NCBI RefSeq assembly: GCF_038397785.1
Contig: NZ_CP151642.1
Span: forward strand, 2,418,001 to 2,482,000
Direction of reading: 5' to 3'
Origin: Salinibacterium sp. TMP30
Lineage (GTDB): Bacteria; Actinomycetota; Actinomycetes; Actinomycetales; Microbacteriaceae
Length of the DNA: 64,000 bases
The first letter of the stretch is position 1, and each line of letters starts with the position of its first letter. This document shows positions 55,181 to 63,584 of this stretch, piece after piece. The notes under the pieces were generated by a model. That model did no database searches and had not been told where the DNA came from. It was given only the letters and a program-made list of their open reading frames with translations. The position numbers and the translations under genes are program-made.

Positions 55181-58100
55181 CTAGAAGACGAACACCAGTC
55201 GTGGCCAGCTTAAACTCGACTCCACAGTGGCGTTACCGGAGTACTCGACCCAAATGAAGTGGATACCGCGGCTGAGCTTCGGCAGTTCCAGCGAAGCATT
55301 GCCGCGATTGTCTACCGTGCTCGTTCCGACAGCGGTGCGACCGTCATAGAAGGTCACCTCGCCAGCGGACGTGCCATCTTTACCAACCTTGACGCTGGCA
55401 TCGACGGTGACCGAGCGGTTGCCCCACACGAACCAAGAGGAGAGGCTCGTGCTGACTCGCGACGAGATCTTCTCCACTGATTGGGCGTCCGATACAGCCA
55501 CACCGTCTGAGAAACCGTCCTTGCTGGCCGTGACCTGCACGCTCAACTCGGTGCCGATGTCCTCGGTCGTGATGCGGTAGCGACGGTCGGTTGCATCGGC
55601 AATCGGCTCACCATCGCGCAGCCACTGGTAGCTGAACTCTGCCGAACGCTCACTCCACCGTCCCGGCATTGCCTTGACGGTCTTACCAACCTCAACCGTG
55701 CCTCGGATGCTCGGAGCACGAGTGTTCTCGATTGCTTCTGCCGTTGCGGTGACCTCGATCGGAACCGCAATCGCAGTATCCGTTCCCGGCACCGCTACGG
55801 TCAGCGCGAGCATGCCCGAAGGCACTCCAGCCGGGATCGTGATCGTCACTGTTGCGCGACCCTGCTCATCCGTCGTATCGACGATGGTGCGGTCGATTGT
55901 TGCCGAACCGAGCACGGTACCGTCAACCGATACTTCGACCGTGGTGGCATCTGATCCGCCACGGCTGAAGGTGAGCGACGACAGATCGAGCGTGACGTCG
56001 TCTCCGGGGTTGTAGCCGTCAGCATCCGGAGCCGAAACAACAGCACCAATAGCGCGCTGTTCGAACGGCGGCGAAGCTACCGGGGTCTCCTCGAAGTAGT
56101 CGACCATGGCCTGCAGGTCGACGCGTCCGGTGTCGGTCGGGTTCGCGCCCGCAGCGAGAGTAGCGAAGTTGTCGCCACCAGCCGCGAGGAAGGAGTTAGC
56201 AACCACTTTGTAGTTGGCTGCAGCATCCACCGGAACACCGTTGAGGTACATCGCAGTCACATGTGCACCCTGGCCCGCAGCGGGGTCATAGACGTACGTG
56301 AGTCCTTCAGAAACACCGAGCTTGAGGAACGGACGCTGAGCGCCAGCGGGCTGCCACTGCTCTTCAAGAACCTGCTTGAGCTGGGCACCCGTGAGTGTCA
56401 GCGTGACAAGAGTGTTCGCGAAGGGCTGCACGTTGGCTGCCTCACGGTAGGTCACATCACCGTCAGCGTCATTGGGCCCCGAGGATTCATAGACGAGGTC
56501 GGTACGCAAACCACCAGGGTTCATGAAGGCGATCTCTGCACCCGAATCGGATGCTGCCCAGAGCTGAACGTCAGCAACAAAGTTACCGAGTGTCGACTCT
56601 CCACCGCGGTTCTCCGGGAACGGGGTTCCCACTACCGGAGTCTGAACCGCACGGAACATGCTCGCCGAGATTTCGCCGACCTTGGCCGAACCCAACTCGT
56701 CAGCAACAGCGGTCGCTTCGTCAACGATTGCCTGCACAGCCAAGTCAGGCTCGAAGCCCTCAATGGGCAACACCTCGGCGCTGAAGGAGATGATCTCCTG
56801 CGTTGCCGGGTCAACCGTCAGGTCGAAGTGACCGTAGTTTGAGCCGTACTGTCCCGCCGAGATGACCAGTCGAGGGCGGTCCATACCGGGAATCGCGATC
56901 TCGTGGTCGTAGGCCAGGTGAGTGTGACCCGAAACGATTGCTTCAACCTTCGGGCTCAGGTCCGTGACGATCTTGCCAAAGTCCGAATCGTCAGTTGACG
57001 CCGCGATATCGGTGGATGCCGCACCCTCATGAACGAGCAAGACGAGTACGTCGGCTTCGCCGTTAGCGTCATTGCCGTCGGTGAGGTAGTCCGCAACGCG
57101 ATCAACCTCGGTAACGATGCTGCGAATCTCCAGCGAGGCAATGCCAGCAGGGCTGACCAGCTCATTGAGGTCCTCGGTGACGGCACCAATGAATCCGACA
57201 GTCACGCCATCGAACTCCTGCAGGAAGTACTCGTCATAGGCCGGAGCGTTCGTAGCCCGGTCGTAGAGGTTCGCTGCAAGGTAGGGCCAGTCGGCGGCAT
57301 CCAGGATGCGGTCGTCAACATCGGCGCGACCCTGATCGAATTCGTGGTTACCGAACGAACTCGTGGCGAGCCCAATTTCGTTGAGCACATCAATTGTGGG
57401 CTGATCGTTCTGGATAAACGACGTGAACGTGGATGCACCAAGGAAGTCACCGGCACCAACAAATGTTGTGTTCGGGTTCTGTGCCTCCCAGTAGTTCACC
57501 ATTCCACCGAGCTGAGCTGCTCCAGGAATGCCGCGACCGGCTTCGATGCGACCGTGGAAGTCGTTCGTCGTCAGAATTTCGATCTCGACGGGCACCGCCT
57601 CAGTGCTGAGGCCGATGCTAATCGGATCGTGATCACTCGAGCGGAATACGGTTCCCGCTTCAGCTGCCGCATACGCGTAGCCACGGTCTGACCATTCTGG
57701 GGAGTTAATGTTCCAGACAGCAGCATCCGTCACGTGGTCGGCAAGCGACGGCGACACAATGATGTGGTCGAGTGATCCCAGTTCACCATCGAAGGTGTAG
57801 GTATATCGATCGTCGGTCGTGGCAGCAAGAGTGTCAACGTAGCCAGCCGAAGTGAACACCTGAACTGGGTCTTCTTCAGAGTAGGAGTTGAAGTCACCCA
57901 CAAGAACAACCTGATCGCTCTTGGTTGGATCAGCCGAAATGCTGTCAACAAGCGCCTTCACCGCGGTGGCCTGCTCAACACGCTCAGTGTTGAACTTTCC
58001 CTGACCATCAGCAGGTTCAGCGCCCGAGCCACCCTTCGATTTGAAGTGGTTGGCGATAACCGTAATGAGTTCGCCATTCGACTCAAAAGTTTGAGCAATC

Positions 58101-59449
58101 GGCTCACGCGCAATGTCCCACACCGTCTCGTCAACGGCAGTGAAGCTGTCGCCCACCGCGGTGACGGAGGCCGGCTTGAAGATGATCGCGCTCGTGATGA
58201 AGTCGGTGATCGCCGCATCATTGAGTGCTGCCGGGGTGCGAACGTAATCCCATGTACCCGCGCCGGCTGCCGCGTTGAGAGCACCCACGAGGTCCATGAG
58301 CGCTTCGTCGAGGCCGCCACCCAACTTGATGGAGTTCTCGATCTCTTGGAGACCAACAACATCCGCATCGAGCGAGTTGATCGCGGCAACAATCTTCGAC
58401 TGCTGAATCGCAAACTCTTCGGCGGTGTCTGCACCACGCGCATCGGGGTCTTCGCTTGTGAGAGTTGTGAAGTAGTTGAAGACGTTGAATGCTGAGACCT
58501 TGAAGTCTCCGCCAACTACTGGAGCCGACTCTTCACGCGGGTTCGTCGACGCGAACGTGGGGCGGTACTCCGCCGCGCTCGAGTCATTGATCGCAACAGT
58601 CGGCTGCAAACGCCAGTCGTCAAAGCCGTAGCTCAGAATGTAAGGGTTCGCGGGGAACTCAACGGTGTCACCGTTGCGCACAACAGTGTCAGCCGAGAAA
58701 TATGGCTGGTCGCCGGGGTGAGCACCGTTAGAAATCTGGATGCTGTAGCCATCATCGAGGAAAATGCGGCTCGCACGGTTGGCGGCGGCAATCGCGTTTG
58801 CAGCATCGCCGGCATCCGTGGTTTCGGTGCTCTTGACGGCGAGTTCTTCTGGGCTGAGCCAGAGCGTGCCGAAGTTGTAGAGCTGGTGGCTTGAGCTGAC
58901 GAGGTAGTCGCCGGTGGGGGCGACCAGCATCGACTCGAAGGGTTCACGATCATTGCCGACAACACTGGTATCAAGCGCCGTTGCTTGAACCGTGTCTGCG
59001 TCTGCGAGGTCTGCTGCGGCGGTAACCAGCTCAACGGTGGCAGGAGTTGCGCCCGCACCTAGCTGAGTCTGGCCAAAACGTTCGTCGACAGGGCCGGTCG
59101 CGCTGACCTTGTCGCCAATGGCGACAGCGGGGTTCAGGTTGTTGAGGTAGAGGAAGATTCCGTCGGAGGCGCCGGGCGTAGCATCGCTCACCCCGCCTGA
59201 TCCGGGAGTCTGAATAACGATGCCGCGGTAGCCGGAAGCTCCGCGGTAGTCAGCAGTAACGACACCATCAACGGTGACGGTAGAACCCACCAAGGGGCTC
59301 GATGCTGTTGTGCCTTGAACATCGGCAATAGTTGCCGTTGCGTCGGCGGCAAGTGCGGCCGGAGCTGTGATCGTAGTCAACGCGATCGCACACGATGTGG
59401 CAAGAGCCCCTATCGTGAGTCGCGTTGGCCTACTGCTTCGAAAATGCAT
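55181..59449 (-). CDS. Secreted ExeM/NucH-type endonuclease fused to 5'-nucleotidase, with Ig-like repeats
   Basis: About 1422 residues from ATG 59449. A signal peptide ends near APAALAA. Then a nuclease-associated OB/lamin-like domain (about 40-190), an endonuclease/exonuclease/phosphatase domain (about 320-615; NVFNYFT, DVVGLQEIEN, NHFKSKGG, LVGDFNSY, SSDHDPI), and a metallophosphatase (TTNDFHGRIE, GAGDFLGAS, FGNHEFDQG, SGHTHLAYDH). A 5'-nucleotidase C-terminal domain follows (ESTLGNFVAD, NPGGLRTD), then two to three Ig-like modules to the end. No sorting motif. Likely frees phosphate and nucleosides from extracellular DNA. Confidence 0.9.
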   Translation of the reverse strand: MHFRSSRPTRLTIGALATSCAIALTTITAPAALAADATATIADVQGTTASSPLVGSTVTVDGVVTADYRGASGYRGIVIQTPGSGGVSDATPGASDGIFLYLNNLNPAVAIGDKVSATGPVDERFGQTQLGAGATPATVELVTAAADLADADTVQATALDTSVVGNDREPFESMLVAPTGDYLVSSSHQLYNFGTLWLSPEELAVKSTETTDAGDAANAIAAANRASRIFLDDGYSIQISNGAHPGDQPYFSADTVVRNGDTVEFPANPYILSYGFDDWRLQPTVAINDSSAAEYRPTFASTNPREESAPVVGGDFKVSAFNVFNYFTTLTSEDPDARGADTAEEFAIQQSKIVAAINSLDADVVGLQEIENSIKLGGGLDEALMDLVGALNAAAGAGTWDYVRTPAALNDAAITDFITSAIIFKPASVTAVGDSFTAVDETVWDIAREPIAQTFESNGELITVIANHFKSKGGSGAEPADGQGKFNTERVEQATAVKALVDSISADPTKSDQVVLVGDFNSYSEEDPVQVFTSAGYVDTLAATTDDRYTYTFDGELGSLDHIIVSPSLADHVTDAAVWNINSPEWSDRGYAYAAAEAGTVFRSSDHDPISIGLSTEAVPVEIEILTTNDFHGRIEAGRGIPGAAQLGGMVNYWEAQNPNTTFVGAGDFLGASTFTSFIQNDQPTIDVLNEIGLATSSFGNHEFDQGRADVDDRILDAADWPYLAANLYDRATNAPAYDEYFLQEFDGVTVGFIGAVTEDLNELVSPAGIASLEIRSIVTEVDRVADYLTDGNDANGEADVLVLLVHEGAASTDIAASTDDSDFGKIVTDLSPKVEAIVSGHTHLAYDHEIAIPGMDRPRLVISAGQYGSNYGHFDLTVDPATQEIISFSAEVLPIEGFEPDLAVQAIVDEATAVADELGSAKVGEISASMFRAVQTPVVGTPFPENRGGESTLGNFVADVQLWAASDSGAEIAFMNPGGLRTDLVYESSGPNDADGDVTYREAANVQPFANTLVTLTLTGAQLKQVLEEQWQPAGAQRPFLKLGVSEGLTYVYDPAAGQGAHVTAMYLNGVPVDAAANYKVVANSFLAAGGDNFATLAAGANPTDTGRVDLQAMVDYFEETPVASPPFEQRAIGAVVSAPDADGYNPGDDVTLDLSSLTFSRGGSDATTVEVSVDGTVLGSATIDRTIVDTTDEQGRATVTITIPAGVPSGMLALTVAVPGTDTAIAVPIEVTATAEAIENTRAPSIRGTVEVGKTVKAMPGRWSERSAEFSYQWLRDGEPIADATDRRYRITTEDIGTELSVQVTASKDGFSDGVAVSDAQSVEKISSRVSTSLSSWFVWGNRSVTVDASVKVGKDGTSAGEVTFYDGRTAVGTSTVDNRGNASLELPKLSRGIHFIWVEYSGNATVESSLSWPRLVFVF

Positions 59450-59487
59450 AGCGGGCAGTCCCCTCGAGAGTTGTGAAATCTGTGGTC

Positions 59488-59504
59488 TACCCCCATTAGG
59501 GGTA
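59488..59504. promoter_or_regulatory. Short palindrome upstream of the nuclease gene
   Basis: TACCCC and GGGGTA arms around CATTA, about 40 nt upstream of the nuclease ATG. It could be an operator or a leader hairpin. It does not match the direct-repeat form of a Pho box. Confidence 0.3.
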
Positions 59505-59644
59505 TGACAGACGATAGCCCCGCTCACAGCCAATTCCAAGGGTTAAGGCGAATTGCTCATGTGCGCGTAACCCACTGTTCGTGTGCGCATCTAGCGGCTA
59601 CCCGGATGCTGCATGCCCAGCAGGCTCGCCACATCACTCGTCGG

Positions 59645-60463
59645 CTAGCGCACAGAGGAGCGCGCGAAAGCGTGTGCACGTGCAGCCAACGAGCGGGAGA
59701 TGCGCCCAAAGAGTTCCAGACTCGCCTGGCCGGGCCACCCCGACGGAAGCGCCGAGTTCGGCAACCCAGGATCGAGATACGGGATCACTCGCCACTGATC
59801 AAGAGCATGAATGTAGCGAGCGAAGGCTTCGGCGTCGCTCGCGGCCGGGCCCACCTGAGCGGAGTGCTGTGCGAGGAAACGCTCATGCAATTCGCGCAAG
59901 CGATCCAGATCCCACCACTGAGCTGCGGCATCCGACAGCGGGCGGTCTGTTTCAGGGCTTCCTGCGATGAACAGCGTTGCGCATTCCTGCAGATCGAGGT
60001 CTTCAAGAATCGCAAGAACCTCATCCTTGAGCGATGCCGGGCAAATCCAGAGACCCGTTGCGACGGTTCCACAGCCGATCCAGCCCAGCCGTCGGCGCAA
60101 CTGGTGACGTGCATCCCGGCGCGACTCAGGAATGGAAAACGAGATCAAACACCAGTTATCGTCTTCGCGCTGTTGTCGAAAACTGAAAATGCGGCGGTCA
60201 CCACTTTCGAGCATGGGCACCGCGTCACCATGCACCCGATACCCCGGCTGACCGTTGACAACCTCAGGAACGAGCAAACCCTTCGACTTGACTCGAGCGA
60301 TCGCACTGCGAGCGCCATTGGCCGGAACTCCCAATGCCTCCATGATGCGCACAAGCTGCGCCGACGAGATCCAGCCGCCCAACTGGCGCAACTGCGAGCC
60401 AACAAAGGTGCGCAGCAGTGAGGTAGCGCTCCCCGGTCGGGAGTCGAAGTCATCCAGAATCAC
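59645..60463 (-). CDS. PaaX-family transcriptional regulator
   Basis: 272 residues. N-terminal winged helix (FVGSQLRQLGGWISSAQLVRIMEALGVPANGARSAIARVKSKGLL) followed by the PaaX body: LGWIGCGTVATGLWICPA and the DPGLPNSALPSGWPGQ segment near the C-terminus. PaaX repressors respond to aryl-CoA thioesters such as phenylacetyl-CoA. Here it is the last gene of the kynurenine operon, 6 nt after kynU, so it may respond to a tryptophan breakdown product (inference). Confidence 0.9.
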   Translation of the reverse strand: MILDDFDSRPGSATSLLRTFVGSQLRQLGGWISSAQLVRIMEALGVPANGARSAIARVKSKGLLVPEVVNGQPGYRVHGDAVPMLESGDRRIFSFRQQREDDNWCLISFSIPESRRDARHQLRRRLGWIGCGTVATGLWICPASLKDEVLAILEDLDLQECATLFIAGSPETDRPLSDAAAQWWDLDRLRELHERFLAQHSAQVGPAASDAEAFARYIHALDQWRVIPYLDPGLPNSALPSGWPGQASLELFGRISRSLAARAHAFARSSVR

Positions 60464-60469
60464 GGGCTG

Positions 60470-61681
60470 CTACTTCACCATGGCTGCGTGAATTGCTTCG
60501 ATCCCCAACTGCACTTCGGCGAAGGTGGTGCTCAGCGGTGATAGCCCCAAGCGGATGCCGTGGGGCCGGCGAAAGTCAGGAATGATCCCCTGTTTCCACA
60601 GTTCGGCGTTGACGCGGCCGAAACTCTCGTGGTCGATCGTGATGTGGCTGCCACGCTCATCGGAATTGCGCGGTGAGCTCACGGTGACGCCGAGCGGAAC
60701 GAGCAATTCGTCGACCAGTTCAAGCGCGAATTCGGTGAGCGCGACAGACTTTGCGCGAATCGCAGGAATGCTGGCCTGCTCGATGAGTCCCAGCATGTCT
60801 TGCATGGCAAGGGATCCAATAATCGACGGCGTGCCACTGATGAAGCGACGGATGCCGTGGTGCGGCGCATAGCCTGGCCCCATTTCGAAGGGAGTGCTGC
60901 TGCCCATCCACCCCTGGATTGGTTGGGTCATGCTCTCGATGTGTTCTGCGCGCACATACCCGTAGGCGGGGGAGCCTGGCCCACCGTTGAGGTATTTGTA
61001 GGTGCACCCGACGGCGAGGTCGACACCCCACTCGTCGAGTTCGGTTTCGACAACTCCGGCGGAGTGACAGGTATCCCAGAGTACGAGCGCACCCACTTCG
61101 TGAACGAGCGCGGTGATGCCGGGCATGTCAGCGAGGTGTCCGGAGCGGTAGGCGACATGGCTGATGACGACGATGGCGGTGCTCTCGGTGAGGACCGCGC
61201 GCAGCTGGTCGGCGGTTACTCCCCCGTCGATGGGCGGGTCGACCCACCGCAGCGTTTTGCCGAGTTCGTCGGCAATTCCTTCGACGAGATAGCGGTCGGT
61301 GGGAAAGTTGCCGGTGTCGATGACAATTTCGCTGCGATCGGGTCGTGCTGTGAGTGCGGCGCGGATCAGTTTGTACAGGATGACCGTGGTGGAGTCGCCG
61401 ATAAACGTTTGCCCGGGCGCTGCGCCAAGCACTGCGCGGCCGAGTCGGTCGCCGAGAGTCAACGGCAGTTCGTACCATGATTCGTCCCAGCCGCGGATGA
61501 GGCGACCACCCCACTGGTCGTTAACGAAGGATGCTAATTGTTCTGCGCTCGCGGTGGTTGGGCGGCCCAGTGAGTTGCCGTCGAGGTAGGCGCGCACTTC
61601 GGGGGAACGCACAAACTTGGCGGGGAAGGCGGCAAGCGGGTCAACGGCATCCTTGGTTGCCGCATCGGGTGTGGTATTCAT
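60470..61681 (-). CDS. kynU: Kynureninase
   Basis: PLP enzyme splitting kynurenine into anthranilate and alanine. About 403 residues from ATG 61681 (GAGG 5-6 nt upstream, ATGA overlap with the amidohydrolase stop). Motifs: YLDGNSLGRPT at the N-terminus, GDSTTVILYK, DTGNFPTDRYLVEG, WDTCHSAGVVETEL with the PLP-contacting Asp, and the PLP Lys at about 229 in VGCTYKYLNGGPGSPAYGYV. Confidence 0.95.
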   Translation of the reverse strand: MNTTPDAATKDAVDPLAAFPAKFVRSPEVRAYLDGNSLGRPTTASAEQLASFVNDQWGGRLIRGWDESWYELPLTLGDRLGRAVLGAAPGQTFIGDSTTVILYKLIRAALTARPDRSEIVIDTGNFPTDRYLVEGIADELGKTLRWVDPPIDGGVTADQLRAVLTESTAIVVISHVAYRSGHLADMPGITALVHEVGALVLWDTCHSAGVVETELDEWGVDLAVGCTYKYLNGGPGSPAYGYVRAEHIESMTQPIQGWMGSSTPFEMGPGYAPHHGIRRFISGTPSIIGSLAMQDMLGLIEQASIPAIRAKSVALTEFALELVDELLVPLGVTVSSPRNSDERGSHITIDHESFGRVNAELWKQGIIPDFRRPHGIRLGLSPLSTTFAEVQLGIEAIHAAMVK

Positions 61682-62730
61682 CGGGTCCTCATTAGTTCGG
61701 GTGCGGTCAGTACAGTTGCGGTCATCAGCCATTGGGCAAGATCGGTATCAGCGTCGGGAACGGTCGGAAGGTAGCTCACGGTGCTGCCGAGGCTCGGAAG
61801 GCAGAGCGCTCGAAGGAGAGCGTCGTTACGCACCCCGGCATCCTGCAGGGCGACAAGCTCGCGCTGGTTGAGTCCCGGCGGAAGATCGCCATTGCCGAGG
61901 TCGGTGCCGTACCGCACGATTCCCCCGGCGAGGTGGAACCGTCGCAGGTTGTCGCTGGCGATGTCACAGTCGATACCGCGTTGACCGTAGCCGTGGATGT
62001 CGAGGGTGCTGACCCAGGAGTGGCGCCCACCCAAGAAACGTGGATCGCTCTGCGCCATCGTCTCAATGAGGGCGTCATCGAGACGTTCCGACCACGGTGT
62101 GTGGGCGAGACGATCAACACCGGCATCGAAGGCTCGCTGTGCCTGGCCGATTCCTTGCGCGTGCGCGACAACTTCGCAGCCTCTGCTGTGCGAGTACTCG
62201 ACCACGGCATCCAACGTCTCATCGGCGATGACCGGACCATCATCGGTATTCAGCGTGACTTTGATGAGGGATGCCCCCGCAGCTACTTGCTCAGCCACAA
62301 CCGCGATCGCTTGCTCTGGCGTTGACACTTCGCACACCGAGAGTGTTGCGGCCCACGCGCGAGTAGCAGGGTAGCCGCCGGGTGCCGTAATGAATGCCCC
62401 CGCATAGCGCAGCGCAGGAACCATGTTGTCGCTCGCCCATTCGATAAGACGGCCAGGGTCTCCGCCCAGGTCATCAACCGCAGCAAGGCCGCCCGCGATG
62501 AGGCTACGCGGCTCGATCAGCCCGAGATGCACGTGCGAGTCACGAAAGCCCGGAAGCAGCACTCCCGGGAGGTGGCGCGCACCAGAGTTGTGGTGATCGG
62601 CGGTTGGGGCATCCGGAAGTACCGTAATTGAGGATGGCGTAACCCGCACAATGGCCGGACCATGCCAGCCGCGCTCCCAGTACGCATCAATCGCATAGTC
62701 GACGCTTGCCGCGCCGACGGGCTCTGTCAC
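61678..62730 (-). CDS. Metal-dependent amidohydrolase in the kynurenine operon
   Basis: 350 residues, amidohydrolase superfamily. A full metal set is visible: His66 and His68 (FRDSHVHLG), Lys157 (SLIKVTL, possible carboxylated bridge), His190 (EVVAHAQG), His210 (RLAHTPW) and Asp277 (RYGTDLG). It lies between kynA and kynU with 4-nt overlaps on both sides. That is the slot of N-formylkynurenine formamidase (kynB), which belongs to another fold and is absent here. The simplest inference is that it hydrolyses N-formylkynurenine, but this is untested. Confidence 0.85.
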
Positions 62731-63584
62731 GAACGCCCAATCTCGGTGCGCACAGCGAATAGTTCAGGGAAGAAGGTGAGATCGAGTGCTTTCTGCAAGA
62801 AGCCGACACCGCTTGACCCGCCGGTGCCACGCTTCATGCCGATGATGCGCATGACTGTTTTCATGTGGCGGAAGCGCCACAGCTGAAAGTTGTCTTCGAG
62901 GTCAACGAATTCTTCGCACGCTTCGTAGGCGAGCCAGTGTTCGCTCTCGTTGTCGTAAATGTGGCGGAACGTGTCGATGAGGTCATCGTTCTGCTCGTAG
63001 CCGCGCGTGACATCGCGGTTGAGTACGGCTGCCGGGATGTCGTAGCCGTGCCGGGCAAGGTAGCGGAGAAACTCGTCGTAGACGCTGGGCTCGGCCAGCA
63101 GTGTGCTGAGCAGGGCGTGCGCTTCGGGCTGAGATTCGAAGACCTTGAGCATGCCGGCGTTCTTGTTGCCGAGCAGAAACTCAACCGCGCGGTACTGGTG
63201 CGACTGGAATCCGGATGAGCTACCTAAGTAGTCACGGAACTGCGAATACTCACTGGGCGTCAGGGTCGCAAGCACTGACCACTGCTCGGTGAGAGTGCGC
63301 TGGATGTGCTTGACGCGCGCAATGCGCTTGAGCGCAATAGAGAGGTTGTCGTTGGCGATCAGATCGCGGGCCGAAGTCAGTTCGTGGATCACCAGTTTGA
63401 GCCACAGCTCGGTGGTCTGATGTTGGATGATGAACAGCATCTCGTCGTGATGCTCAGGCTTGCTCTGCGTGGTTTGCGCGCTGAGTAGCTGGTCGAGTTC
63501 TAGGTAGGAACCGTACGACATCCGCTCACTGAAGTCGGTAACAATATCGTCTTCGAGGGCGCGTTCGTTGTGAGTATCCGACAT
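62727..63584 (-). CDS. kynA: Tryptophan 2,3-dioxygenase
   Basis: Heme enzyme opening the indole ring of tryptophan to N-formylkynurenine. 285 residues, normal length. Motifs: [34 protein letters not shown], the substrate-site [19 protein letters not shown], and [24 protein letters not shown] containing the conserved His and GTGGS loop. First gene of kynA-amidohydrolase-kynU-paaX; AGGG 7 nt before ATG. Confidence 0.97.

What the first reader, a model, noticed from the sequence alone, without database searches (positions are those of the whole stretch)
59645..63584. Kynurenine operon with an amidohydrolase in place of formamidase and a PaaX-like regulator
The order kynA, amidohydrolase-superfamily gene, kynU, paaX-like is coupled by two 4-nt overlaps and a 6-nt gap. 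Known bacterial pathways need N-formylkynurenine formamidase (KynB, cyclase fold) between TDO and kynureninase. None is here, but an enzyme with a complete metal site (His66, His68, Lys157, His190, His210, Asp277) fills the slot. It may be a non-orthologous formamidase. A PaaX-type regulator would be an uncommon sensor for tryptophan breakdown.
Basis: partly seen in the sequence, partly recalled or inferred. Interest (0 to 1): 0.7.

Follow-up and report, generated by a model that had tools for sequence, protein, structure and literature searches.

The report
Unrecognised formamidase in kynurenine operon
A marine actinobacterium carries a tryptophan-breakdown operon whose middle enzyme looks unrelated to both known kinds of kynurenine formamidase, and comparisons across hundreds of genomes suggest that it does that job.

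Summary
The operon is as described: kynA, amidohydrolase (amh), kynU and a PaaX-family regulator, joined by two 4-nt overlaps and a 6-nt gap, all six metal ligands present. Reading amh as a non-orthologous N-formylkynurenine formamidase is well supported by comparison but biochemically untested. In 299 genomes of the family, 69 of 79 with main-type TDO carry amh, always adjacent. Canonical KynB passes its cut-off in one genome, which lacks TDO. Of the ten TDO genomes without amh, six carry an alpha/beta hydrolase in the kyn gene group and a seventh a distant relative elsewhere; none of the 69 has one at the same threshold. The window's genome has neither that hydrolase nor a KynB over cut-off. 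The metal ligands are invariant in 43 sequences; the model (pLDDT 94) is closest to ochratoxin amidohydrolases and prolidases. Unexpectedly, at least three lineages keep amh, mostly with kynU, without TDO, which hints at use of outside N-formylkynurenine. PaaX was seen only in loci with kynA. Against: 22 genomes with a divergent TDO have none of the three enzymes at the thresholds used, and 52 of 79 sampled TDO loci of the class have neither amh nor the hydrolase nearby. A longer 'amidohydrolase' was already proposed for this step in mycemycin biosynthesis.

The parts
62727..63584 (-). kynA, tryptophan 2,3-dioxygenase, 285 aa
   Evidence: TIGR03036 404.4 bits, over cut-off 390.7; PF03301
61678..62730 (-). 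amh, amidohydrolase-superfamily protein, 350 aa, GTG start, proposed N-formylkynurenine formamidase
   Evidence: H66, H68, K157, H190, H210, D277 present, invariant in 43 aligned sequences; AF2 model pLDDT 94.4; Foldseek to amidohydrolases
60470..61681 (-). kynU, kynureninase, 403 aa from the ATG at 61681 (the ORF could extend to 61732)
   Evidence: PF22580 over cut-off; TIGR01814 226.6 bits, under its cut-off 246.4; start chosen from the overlap and
59645..60463 (-). paaX-like regulator, 272 aa, last gene of the operon
   Evidence: PaaX, PaaX_M and PaaX_C over cut-off; TIGR02277 123.1 of 264.55 bits; only PaaX_C match in the genome
63585..63629 (-). block conserved in 11 same-genus sequences directly before the kynA ATG; holds the box TGGCGGTCG (63619-63611); candidate operator or promoter
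   Evidence: alignment of 11 upstream regions, G023 of the same genus not included; box TG[AG]CGN[TC]CG within 130 nt before kynA in 20 of 25 paaX+ and 5 of 20 paaX- loci, pattern chosen after looking

Best explanation
The operon is a complete tryptophan-to-anthranilate pathway. KynA turns tryptophan into N-formylkynurenine; amh, a barrel-type amidohydrolase with a two-metal site (HxH, probably carboxylated Lys, two His, one Asp), uses a metal-bound hydroxide to split off formate and give kynurenine; KynU splits kynurenine into anthranilate and alanine. The PaaX-family protein most likely represses the operon from a box at the kynA promoter and is released by a pathway compound. Shown: gene content, order, coupling, conservation, metal ligands, predicted fold, absence of the two other formamidase types at the thresholds used, alternating distribution. 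Inferred: substrate, chemistry, and the regulator's role, site and ligand.
For: (1) 69 of 79 genomes with main-type TDO (of 299 in the family sample) have amh, 69 of 69 adjacent, in 24 genera; Fisher p 7e-39, not corrected for kinship. (2) Canonical KynB over cut-off in 1 of 299 genomes, G068, just over it (223.7 of 223.05 bits) and without TDO; 24 of the 69 have no KynB relative at E<=1e-3. (3) Replacement: of ten TDO genomes lacking amh, five have an alpha/beta hydrolase with HGGFW or HGGYW and GHSAG directly after kynU or kynA (in L140 one gene further on), and a sixth (L135) a weaker one without HGGxW directly before kynA; counted genome-wide, 7 of 10 against 0 of 69. The hydrolase follows kynU in 8 of 8 fetched loci of genus g130 (probably Streptomyces) and in one of them, L208, is read in one 651-aa ORF with kynU. 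A S. roseosporus paper predicts, by RAST, NFK formamidase at the matching position (orf3245-3244-3243; PMC9058172, passages; matched by gene order, sequences not compared). (4) amh keeps kynU at the locus in 29 of 34 named loci without kynA (two, L095 and L117, are cut upstream); G068 shows the parallel pair KynB-KynU without TDO; L157, L158 and L125 have kynA-amh without kynU at the locus. Both break-ups put amh between the two steps. (5) Metal site invariant in 43 sequences; nearest solved structures are amide hydrolases.
Against: No activity data. 22 genomes of the family with a divergent TDO have no amh, no hydrolase at E<=1e-25 and no KynB over cut-off (some have cyclase-family hits at 75-97 bits), and 52 of 79 TDO loci taken from the class sample have neither amh nor the hydrolase in about 7 kb on each side, so the argument from a missing step is weaker than it looks. 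19 of 88 amh genomes have no TDO or IDO, so N-formylkynurenine made in the cell by these enzymes cannot be the substrate there. Related genomes are not independent events. The seventh hydrolase genome (G186) rests on a distant relative (132 bits, HGGYF, outside the operon). G035, G132 and G307 have TDO and neither enzyme. The window's genome has two cyclase-family proteins of unknown substrate. The closest solved relatives cut N-acyl amino acids or peptides rather than formamides.
Confidence: 0.8

Rival explanations
1. Amh works one step later: KynU cleaves N-formylkynurenine directly and amh deformylates the resulting N-formylanthranilate.
For: amh-kynU pairs without kynA fit either order; PMC9058172 lists formation of formylanthranilate by kynureninase as a branch of its predicted network (passage).
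Against: kynA-amh without kynU at the locus (L157, L158, L125; kynU elsewhere in those genomes was not checked), and in L138 the replacing hydrolase follows kynA directly with no kynU at the locus. Both fit a step right after TDO better.
Confidence: 0.07
2. Amh serves another substrate that feeds or drains the pathway (an N-acyl amino acid, a kynurenine conjugate, a dipeptide), and a housekeeping esterase or one of the two cyclase-family proteins deformylates N-formylkynurenine.
For: Closest solved relatives are prolidases, Arg/Lys carboxypeptidases and ochratoxin amidohydrolases; lineages with TDO but no recognised formamidase exist; two PF04199 proteins in the genome.
Against: Does not explain the alternation with the alpha/beta hydrolase nor strict adjacency; 24 of 69 genomes have no KynB relative at E<=1e-3, among them G001 and G010 of the same genus. 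A cyclase with a weak TIGR03035 match elsewhere is tied to nicotine breakdown (PMC6214936, passage), so a weak match is no sign of KynB.
Confidence: 0.11
3. Amh is a passenger of the operon with no role in tryptophan breakdown.
For: Operons can carry unrelated genes; most of the TDO loci sampled from the class (72 of 79) do without amh.
Against: 69 of 69 adjacency in 24 genera, invariant metal site, presence with kynU in three lineages without TDO.
Confidence: 0.02

Closest known systems
Bacterial kynurenine formamidase KynB (PF04199 / TIGR03035, two-zinc site; PMC4243253, passages)
   Same: Same proposed reaction, same operon neighbours, two-metal water activation
   Different: Unrelated fold and sequence: amh has no PF04199 match and models as an amidohydrolase
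Alpha/beta-hydrolase kynurenine formamidase (HGGxW type, as in animals and yeast; that link is recalled)
   Same: A hydrolase of this fold occupies the same operon slot in related genomes
   Different: Serine nucleophile, no metal, different fold
Ochratoxin amidohydrolase ADH3 / prolidase / Arg-Lys carboxypeptidase group of the amidohydrolase superfamily
   Same: Best structural and sequence matches, same ligand pattern HxH-K-H-H-D
   Different: About 20% identity, amh is shorter (350 aa) and linked to kyn genes
Amidohydrolase MymD/MyeD of mycemycin clusters (PMC5867642, passages)
   Same: An 'amidohydrolase' proposed to cleave N-formylkynurenine between TDO and kynureninase; deletion of myeD abolished mycemycins A and B
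   Different: MymD is 513 aa against 350; secondary metabolism of Streptomyces; no formamidase assay seen in the passages read; sequences not compared here
PaaX, repressor of phenylacetate catabolism (TIGR02277)
   Same: Three PaaX Pfam domains
   Different: 123.1 of 264.55 bits; sits in a kyn operon; no other PaaX_C protein found in the genome

Membership tests
KynB (TIGR03035 / PF04199) | Match to the family model | tested here: not met
   Only PF01979 reported for amh; NCBIfam gives only Xaa-Pro dipeptidase at 40.6 of 500 bits
Alpha/beta-hydrolase formamidase | Alpha/beta-hydrolase domain | tested here: not met
   No alpha/beta-hydrolase Pfam match; model matches amidohydrolases
Amidohydrolase superfamily | HxH, Lys, His, His, Asp metal ligands | tested here: met
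   ligands line up with ADH3
Amidohydrolase superfamily | Amidohydrolase fold | tested here: met
   AF2 model pLDDT 94.4; Foldseek E 3.4e-20, TMq 0.73 to 8j85_A; a prediction
Amidohydrolase superfamily | Pfam Amidohydro_1 over gathering score | tested here: not met
   22.3 of 25 bits
Kynurenine formamidase by function (EC 3.5.1.9) | Hydrolysis of N-formylkynurenine | not testable with these tools
   Needs an enzyme assay
Kynurenine formamidase by function (EC 3.5.1.9) | Alternates with other formamidases beside TDO (supporting, not defining) | tested here: met
   Hydrolase in 0 of 69 amh genomes and 7 of 10 amh-less TDO genomes
PaaX (TIGR02277 equivalog) | Score over curated cut-off | tested here: not met
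   123.1 of 264.55 bits
PaaX superfamily regulator | PaaX, PaaX_M and PaaX_C domains | tested here: met
   37.6, 83.4 and 66 bits, all over cut-off
Tryptophan 2,3-dioxygenase (TIGR03036) | Score over curated cut-off | tested here: met
   404.4 of 390.7 bits
Kynureninase (TIGR01814) | Score over curated cut-off | tested here: not met
   226.6 of 246.4 bits; PF22580 KYNU_C over cut-off

The most novel reading that the evidence does not exclude
Amh-KynU is a self-standing salvage module for N-formylkynurenine that the cell does not make itself. Several lineages (Frigoribacterium-Frondihabitans-Curtobacterium, a Microbacterium group, Cellulosimicrobium arenosum) keep amh, mostly beside kynU, without TDO, and may harvest N-formylkynurenine released by light-damaged tryptophan and proteins or by hosts, turning it into anthranilate, alanine and formate.
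Probability: 0.3. Interest if true: 0.68.

Novelty: new variant of a known kind. Interest (0 to 1): 0.6.

Why it matters
It would add a third, structurally unrelated enzyme for the second step of tryptophan breakdown, after the cyclase-type KynB and the alpha/beta-hydrolase type, and would give a function to a protein group whose member in the window Pfam does not recognise at its cut-off. It would fill the pathway gap in many Microbacteriaceae and neighbours. It also exposes a wider gap: many actinobacteria have TDO with no recognised formamidase at the locus. The amh-kynU pairs without TDO and the PaaX-type regulator are each directly testable.

Tried and rejected
A search for close relatives in viral contigs found none. 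IDO as the source of N-formylkynurenine: 0 of 27 genomes, namely the 19 TDO-less amh genomes, 7 named ones and G000; rejected. A distant TDO (PF03301): none in the 19 nor in 4 named genomes (L081, L093, L115, L124; IDO not tested in these 4), but present in 7 of 7 other named genomes (Nocardia, Saccharopolyspora, a Micromonosporaceae bin, two Nocardioides, two Amycolatopsis), where TDO simply lies elsewhere. Longest-ORF gene calling upstream of amh failed in high-GC DNA; a codon-position GC score did better but still miscalled some loci (L078, L083). Promoter and terminator scans were uninformative (1 promoter-like site, 1.2 expected; 2 terminator-like, 3.0 expected). A fixed 45-nt upstream core matched clearly beyond shuffles only in the genus and its nearest kin; the shorter box was picked after seeing the sequences, so its p of 3e-4 is exploratory.

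Choices and dropped rows: amh orthology set at 130 bits or more, because the next scores end at 118; G154, whose TDO is split in two pieces, was put in the main TDO type. L070 left out of the box count; L095, L117 and L131 left out of the tree. The 79 class loci were chosen by me, a few per genus, from the listed rows of 236 TDO genomes (that list was itself cut). Amh relatives in genome contigs: 94 found, best 80 kept. That the family is Microbacteriaceae is inferred from named relatives.

Papers: PMC5867642, PMC4243253, PMC6521150, PMC9058172, PMC6214936, PMC5270213 and PMC10608976 were seen as passages found by term; all others only as search listings. Statements on animal/yeast formamidases are recalled. 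No paper naming this amidohydrolase family as a formamidase, or a PaaX-type kyn regulator, turned up; several listings were capped (20 of 50, 10 of 601, 15 of 134), most papers were not opened, and subscription journals are mostly not held.
Full report
The window lies in a complete 2.69-Mb genome (G000) whose nearest named relatives are Salinibacterium. The finding holds as written. On the minus strand, kynA (63584-62727), amh (62730-61678), kynU (61681-60470) and a PaaX-family gene (60463-59645) follow each other with overlaps of 4 and 4 nt and a gap of 6 nt. The second overlap needs the in-frame ATG at 61681 rather than the longest ORF. The six metal ligands are present.

What amh is. Pfam sees only a sub-threshold Amidohydro_1 match (22.3 of 25 bits) and NCBIfam nothing over cut-off. 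D64, H66, H68, K157, H190, H210 and D277 are invariant in 43 aligned sequences that go down to 42% identity to the window's. The AlphaFold2 model has mean pLDDT 94.4. The best solved matches are ochratoxin A amidohydrolases, a putative prolidase and Arg/Lys carboxypeptidases; phenylurea hydrolase B is at rank 50. It is a metal-type amide hydrolase of a known superfamily, unrelated to KynB and to alpha/beta-hydrolase formamidases.

Linkage. In the same genus, TDO is in 12 of 27 genomes and amh (leaving out one hit at E 9.5e-4) in the same 12, always adjacent. In 299 genomes of the family, 101 have a TDO: 79 of the main type and 22 of a divergent type. Amh is in 88; 69 of the 79 main-type genomes have it, adjacent in 69 of 69, in 24 genera. 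Of 80 named loci with amh, kynU is on the same strand in 72, kynA in 46 and paaX in 25; some loci are cut by contig ends. Beyond the family, amh sits next to TDO in L157, L158 and L169 and beside kynU in Oerskovia, Cellulosimicrobium, Isoptericola, Krasilnikoviella, Nocardia, Nocardioides and Saccharopolyspora loci.

Alternation. Canonical KynB passes its cut-off in 1 of 299 genomes, G068, by 0.6 bits, and G068 has no TDO. The window's genome has two cyclase-family proteins at 81 and 78 of 223 bits, far from the operon. 24 of the 69 have no such relative at E<=1e-3. The ten TDO genomes without amh were opened. Five have an alpha/beta hydrolase (Pfam BD-FAE; HGGFW or HGGYW, and GHSAG) directly after kynU or kynA, in L140 with one gene between; a sixth, L135, has a weaker relative directly before kynA without HGGxW. 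A genome-wide search with eight such hydrolases found relatives at E<=1e-25 in 7 of the 10 and 0 of the 69, p 4e-8, uncorrected for kinship; among the other 220 genomes 21 have one. The seventh, G186, is distant and elsewhere. The hydrolase also follows kynU in 8 of 8 fetched loci of genus g130, which I take for Streptomyces from genome size and number; in L208 both are read in one 651-aa ORF. A S. roseosporus paper predicts NFK formamidase at the matching position (PMC9058172, passages; order compared, not sequence). Two unrelated hydrolases seem to take turns in one slot.

Break-ups. 19 of the 88 amh genomes have no TDO (PF03301) and no IDO; four more named genomes have no TDO. Of 34 named loci without kynA, 29 have kynU after amh; L095 and L117 are cut upstream and do not count against kynA. 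On the amh tree the loci without kynA and without a TDO found elsewhere need three changes, all forced by starred branches; two of the three groups (Microbacterium, Cellulosimicrobium arenosum) are nested among loci with kynA, so loss of TDO is the simplest reading there; for the third the direction is open. G068 shows the same with the canonical enzyme: KynB next to KynU, no TDO. L157, L158 and L125 have kynA-amh without kynU at the locus. Both kinds of break-up put amh between TDO and KynU. They also show that N-formylkynurenine from the cell's own TDO cannot be the substrate everywhere. N-formylkynurenine is a UV product of tryptophan in proteins (abstract of PMC4682814 as listed), so an outside source is a fair guess.

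Regulator. The PaaX-family protein is the only PaaX_C match of the genome and far below the PaaX equivalog. paaX occurs in 25 of 46 loci with kynA and 0 of 34 without, after kynU. Eleven same-genus upstream regions share about 45 nt right before the kynA ATG. A box TG[AG]CGN[TC]CG recurs before kynA in 20 of 25 paaX+ and 5 of 20 paaX- loci; one paaX- locus with the box, L106, is cut by its contig end. The pattern was chosen after inspection. The simplest reading is a repressor at the kynA promoter.

What stands against. 22 of 22 divergent-TDO genomes have no amh, no hydrolase at E<=1e-25 and no KynB over cut-off. Of 79 class loci with TDO, 7 have amh, 20 the hydrolase (115-227 bits), none both, and 52 neither within about 7 kb. 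So TDO often occurs with no recognised formamidase at hand, and the mere need for one is a weak argument; the weight rests on adjacency and alternation. Kinship inflates the p values. No assay exists.

Prior art. For mycemycin an 'amidohydrolase' MymD/MyeD was proposed to cleave N-formylkynurenine, and deletion of myeD abolished the product (PMC5867642, passages). MymD is 513 aa and was not compared by sequence. The idea of an amidohydrolase at this step is therefore not wholly new; a conserved catabolic family of this kind was not seen in the searches listed.

Verdict: observation confirmed; formamidase reading supported at about 0.8; a new variant (third enzyme type) of a known pathway.

Noticed in passing
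L222 (G068:C1:1092481-1107107): Canonical KynB lies next to kynU in a genome in which no TDO was found, a parallel to the amh-kynU pairs without TDO.
   Followed up: partly
L049, L219; 22 genomes with TDO at 169-258 bits: L049 and L219 show a divergent TDO next to kynU with no formamidase seen at the locus; the 22 family genomes with such a TDO have no amh, no kyn-type hydrolase and no KynB over cut-off, though some have cyclase-family hits at 75-97 bits.
   Followed up: partly
L173, L180, L190, L214: Two-gene kynA-kynU loci without a formamidase nearby; a divergent Lrp/AsnC-like gene (named by eye) lies beside kynA.
   Followed up: no
L208:5050-7005, minus strand: kynU and the alpha/beta hydrolase read as one 651-aa ORF, a possible natural fusion.
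   Followed up: no
L079, L088, L097, L132: Amh beside a large AMP-ligase-like gene (L088, L097, L132) or near ClpP-like genes (L079, L097, L132), named by eye, in Nocardia, Saccharopolyspora and Amycolatopsis; looks like another setting for amh.
   Followed up: no
L131:3885-6824: A 979-aa ORF in a metagenome-assembled genome that begins like UvrB (by eye) and ends in the amh-like stretch; fusion or assembly artefact not resolved.
   Followed up: no
L066 and L067: Identical amh proteins in kynA-amh-kynU loci on two scaffolds of one Lacisediminihabitans assembly: duplication or artefact.
   Followed up: no
window 55181-59539, minus strand: A 1452-aa secreted-looking ORF downstream of paaX that reads, by eye, like a nuclease domain followed by a 5'-nucleotidase domain.
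   Followed up: no
L139 (G186:C1:1875000-1891500): kynA-kynU-paaX with amh missing between kynA and kynU, while four other sampled genomes of its genus (G124, G237, G282, G321) have amh beside TDO.
   Followed up: partly
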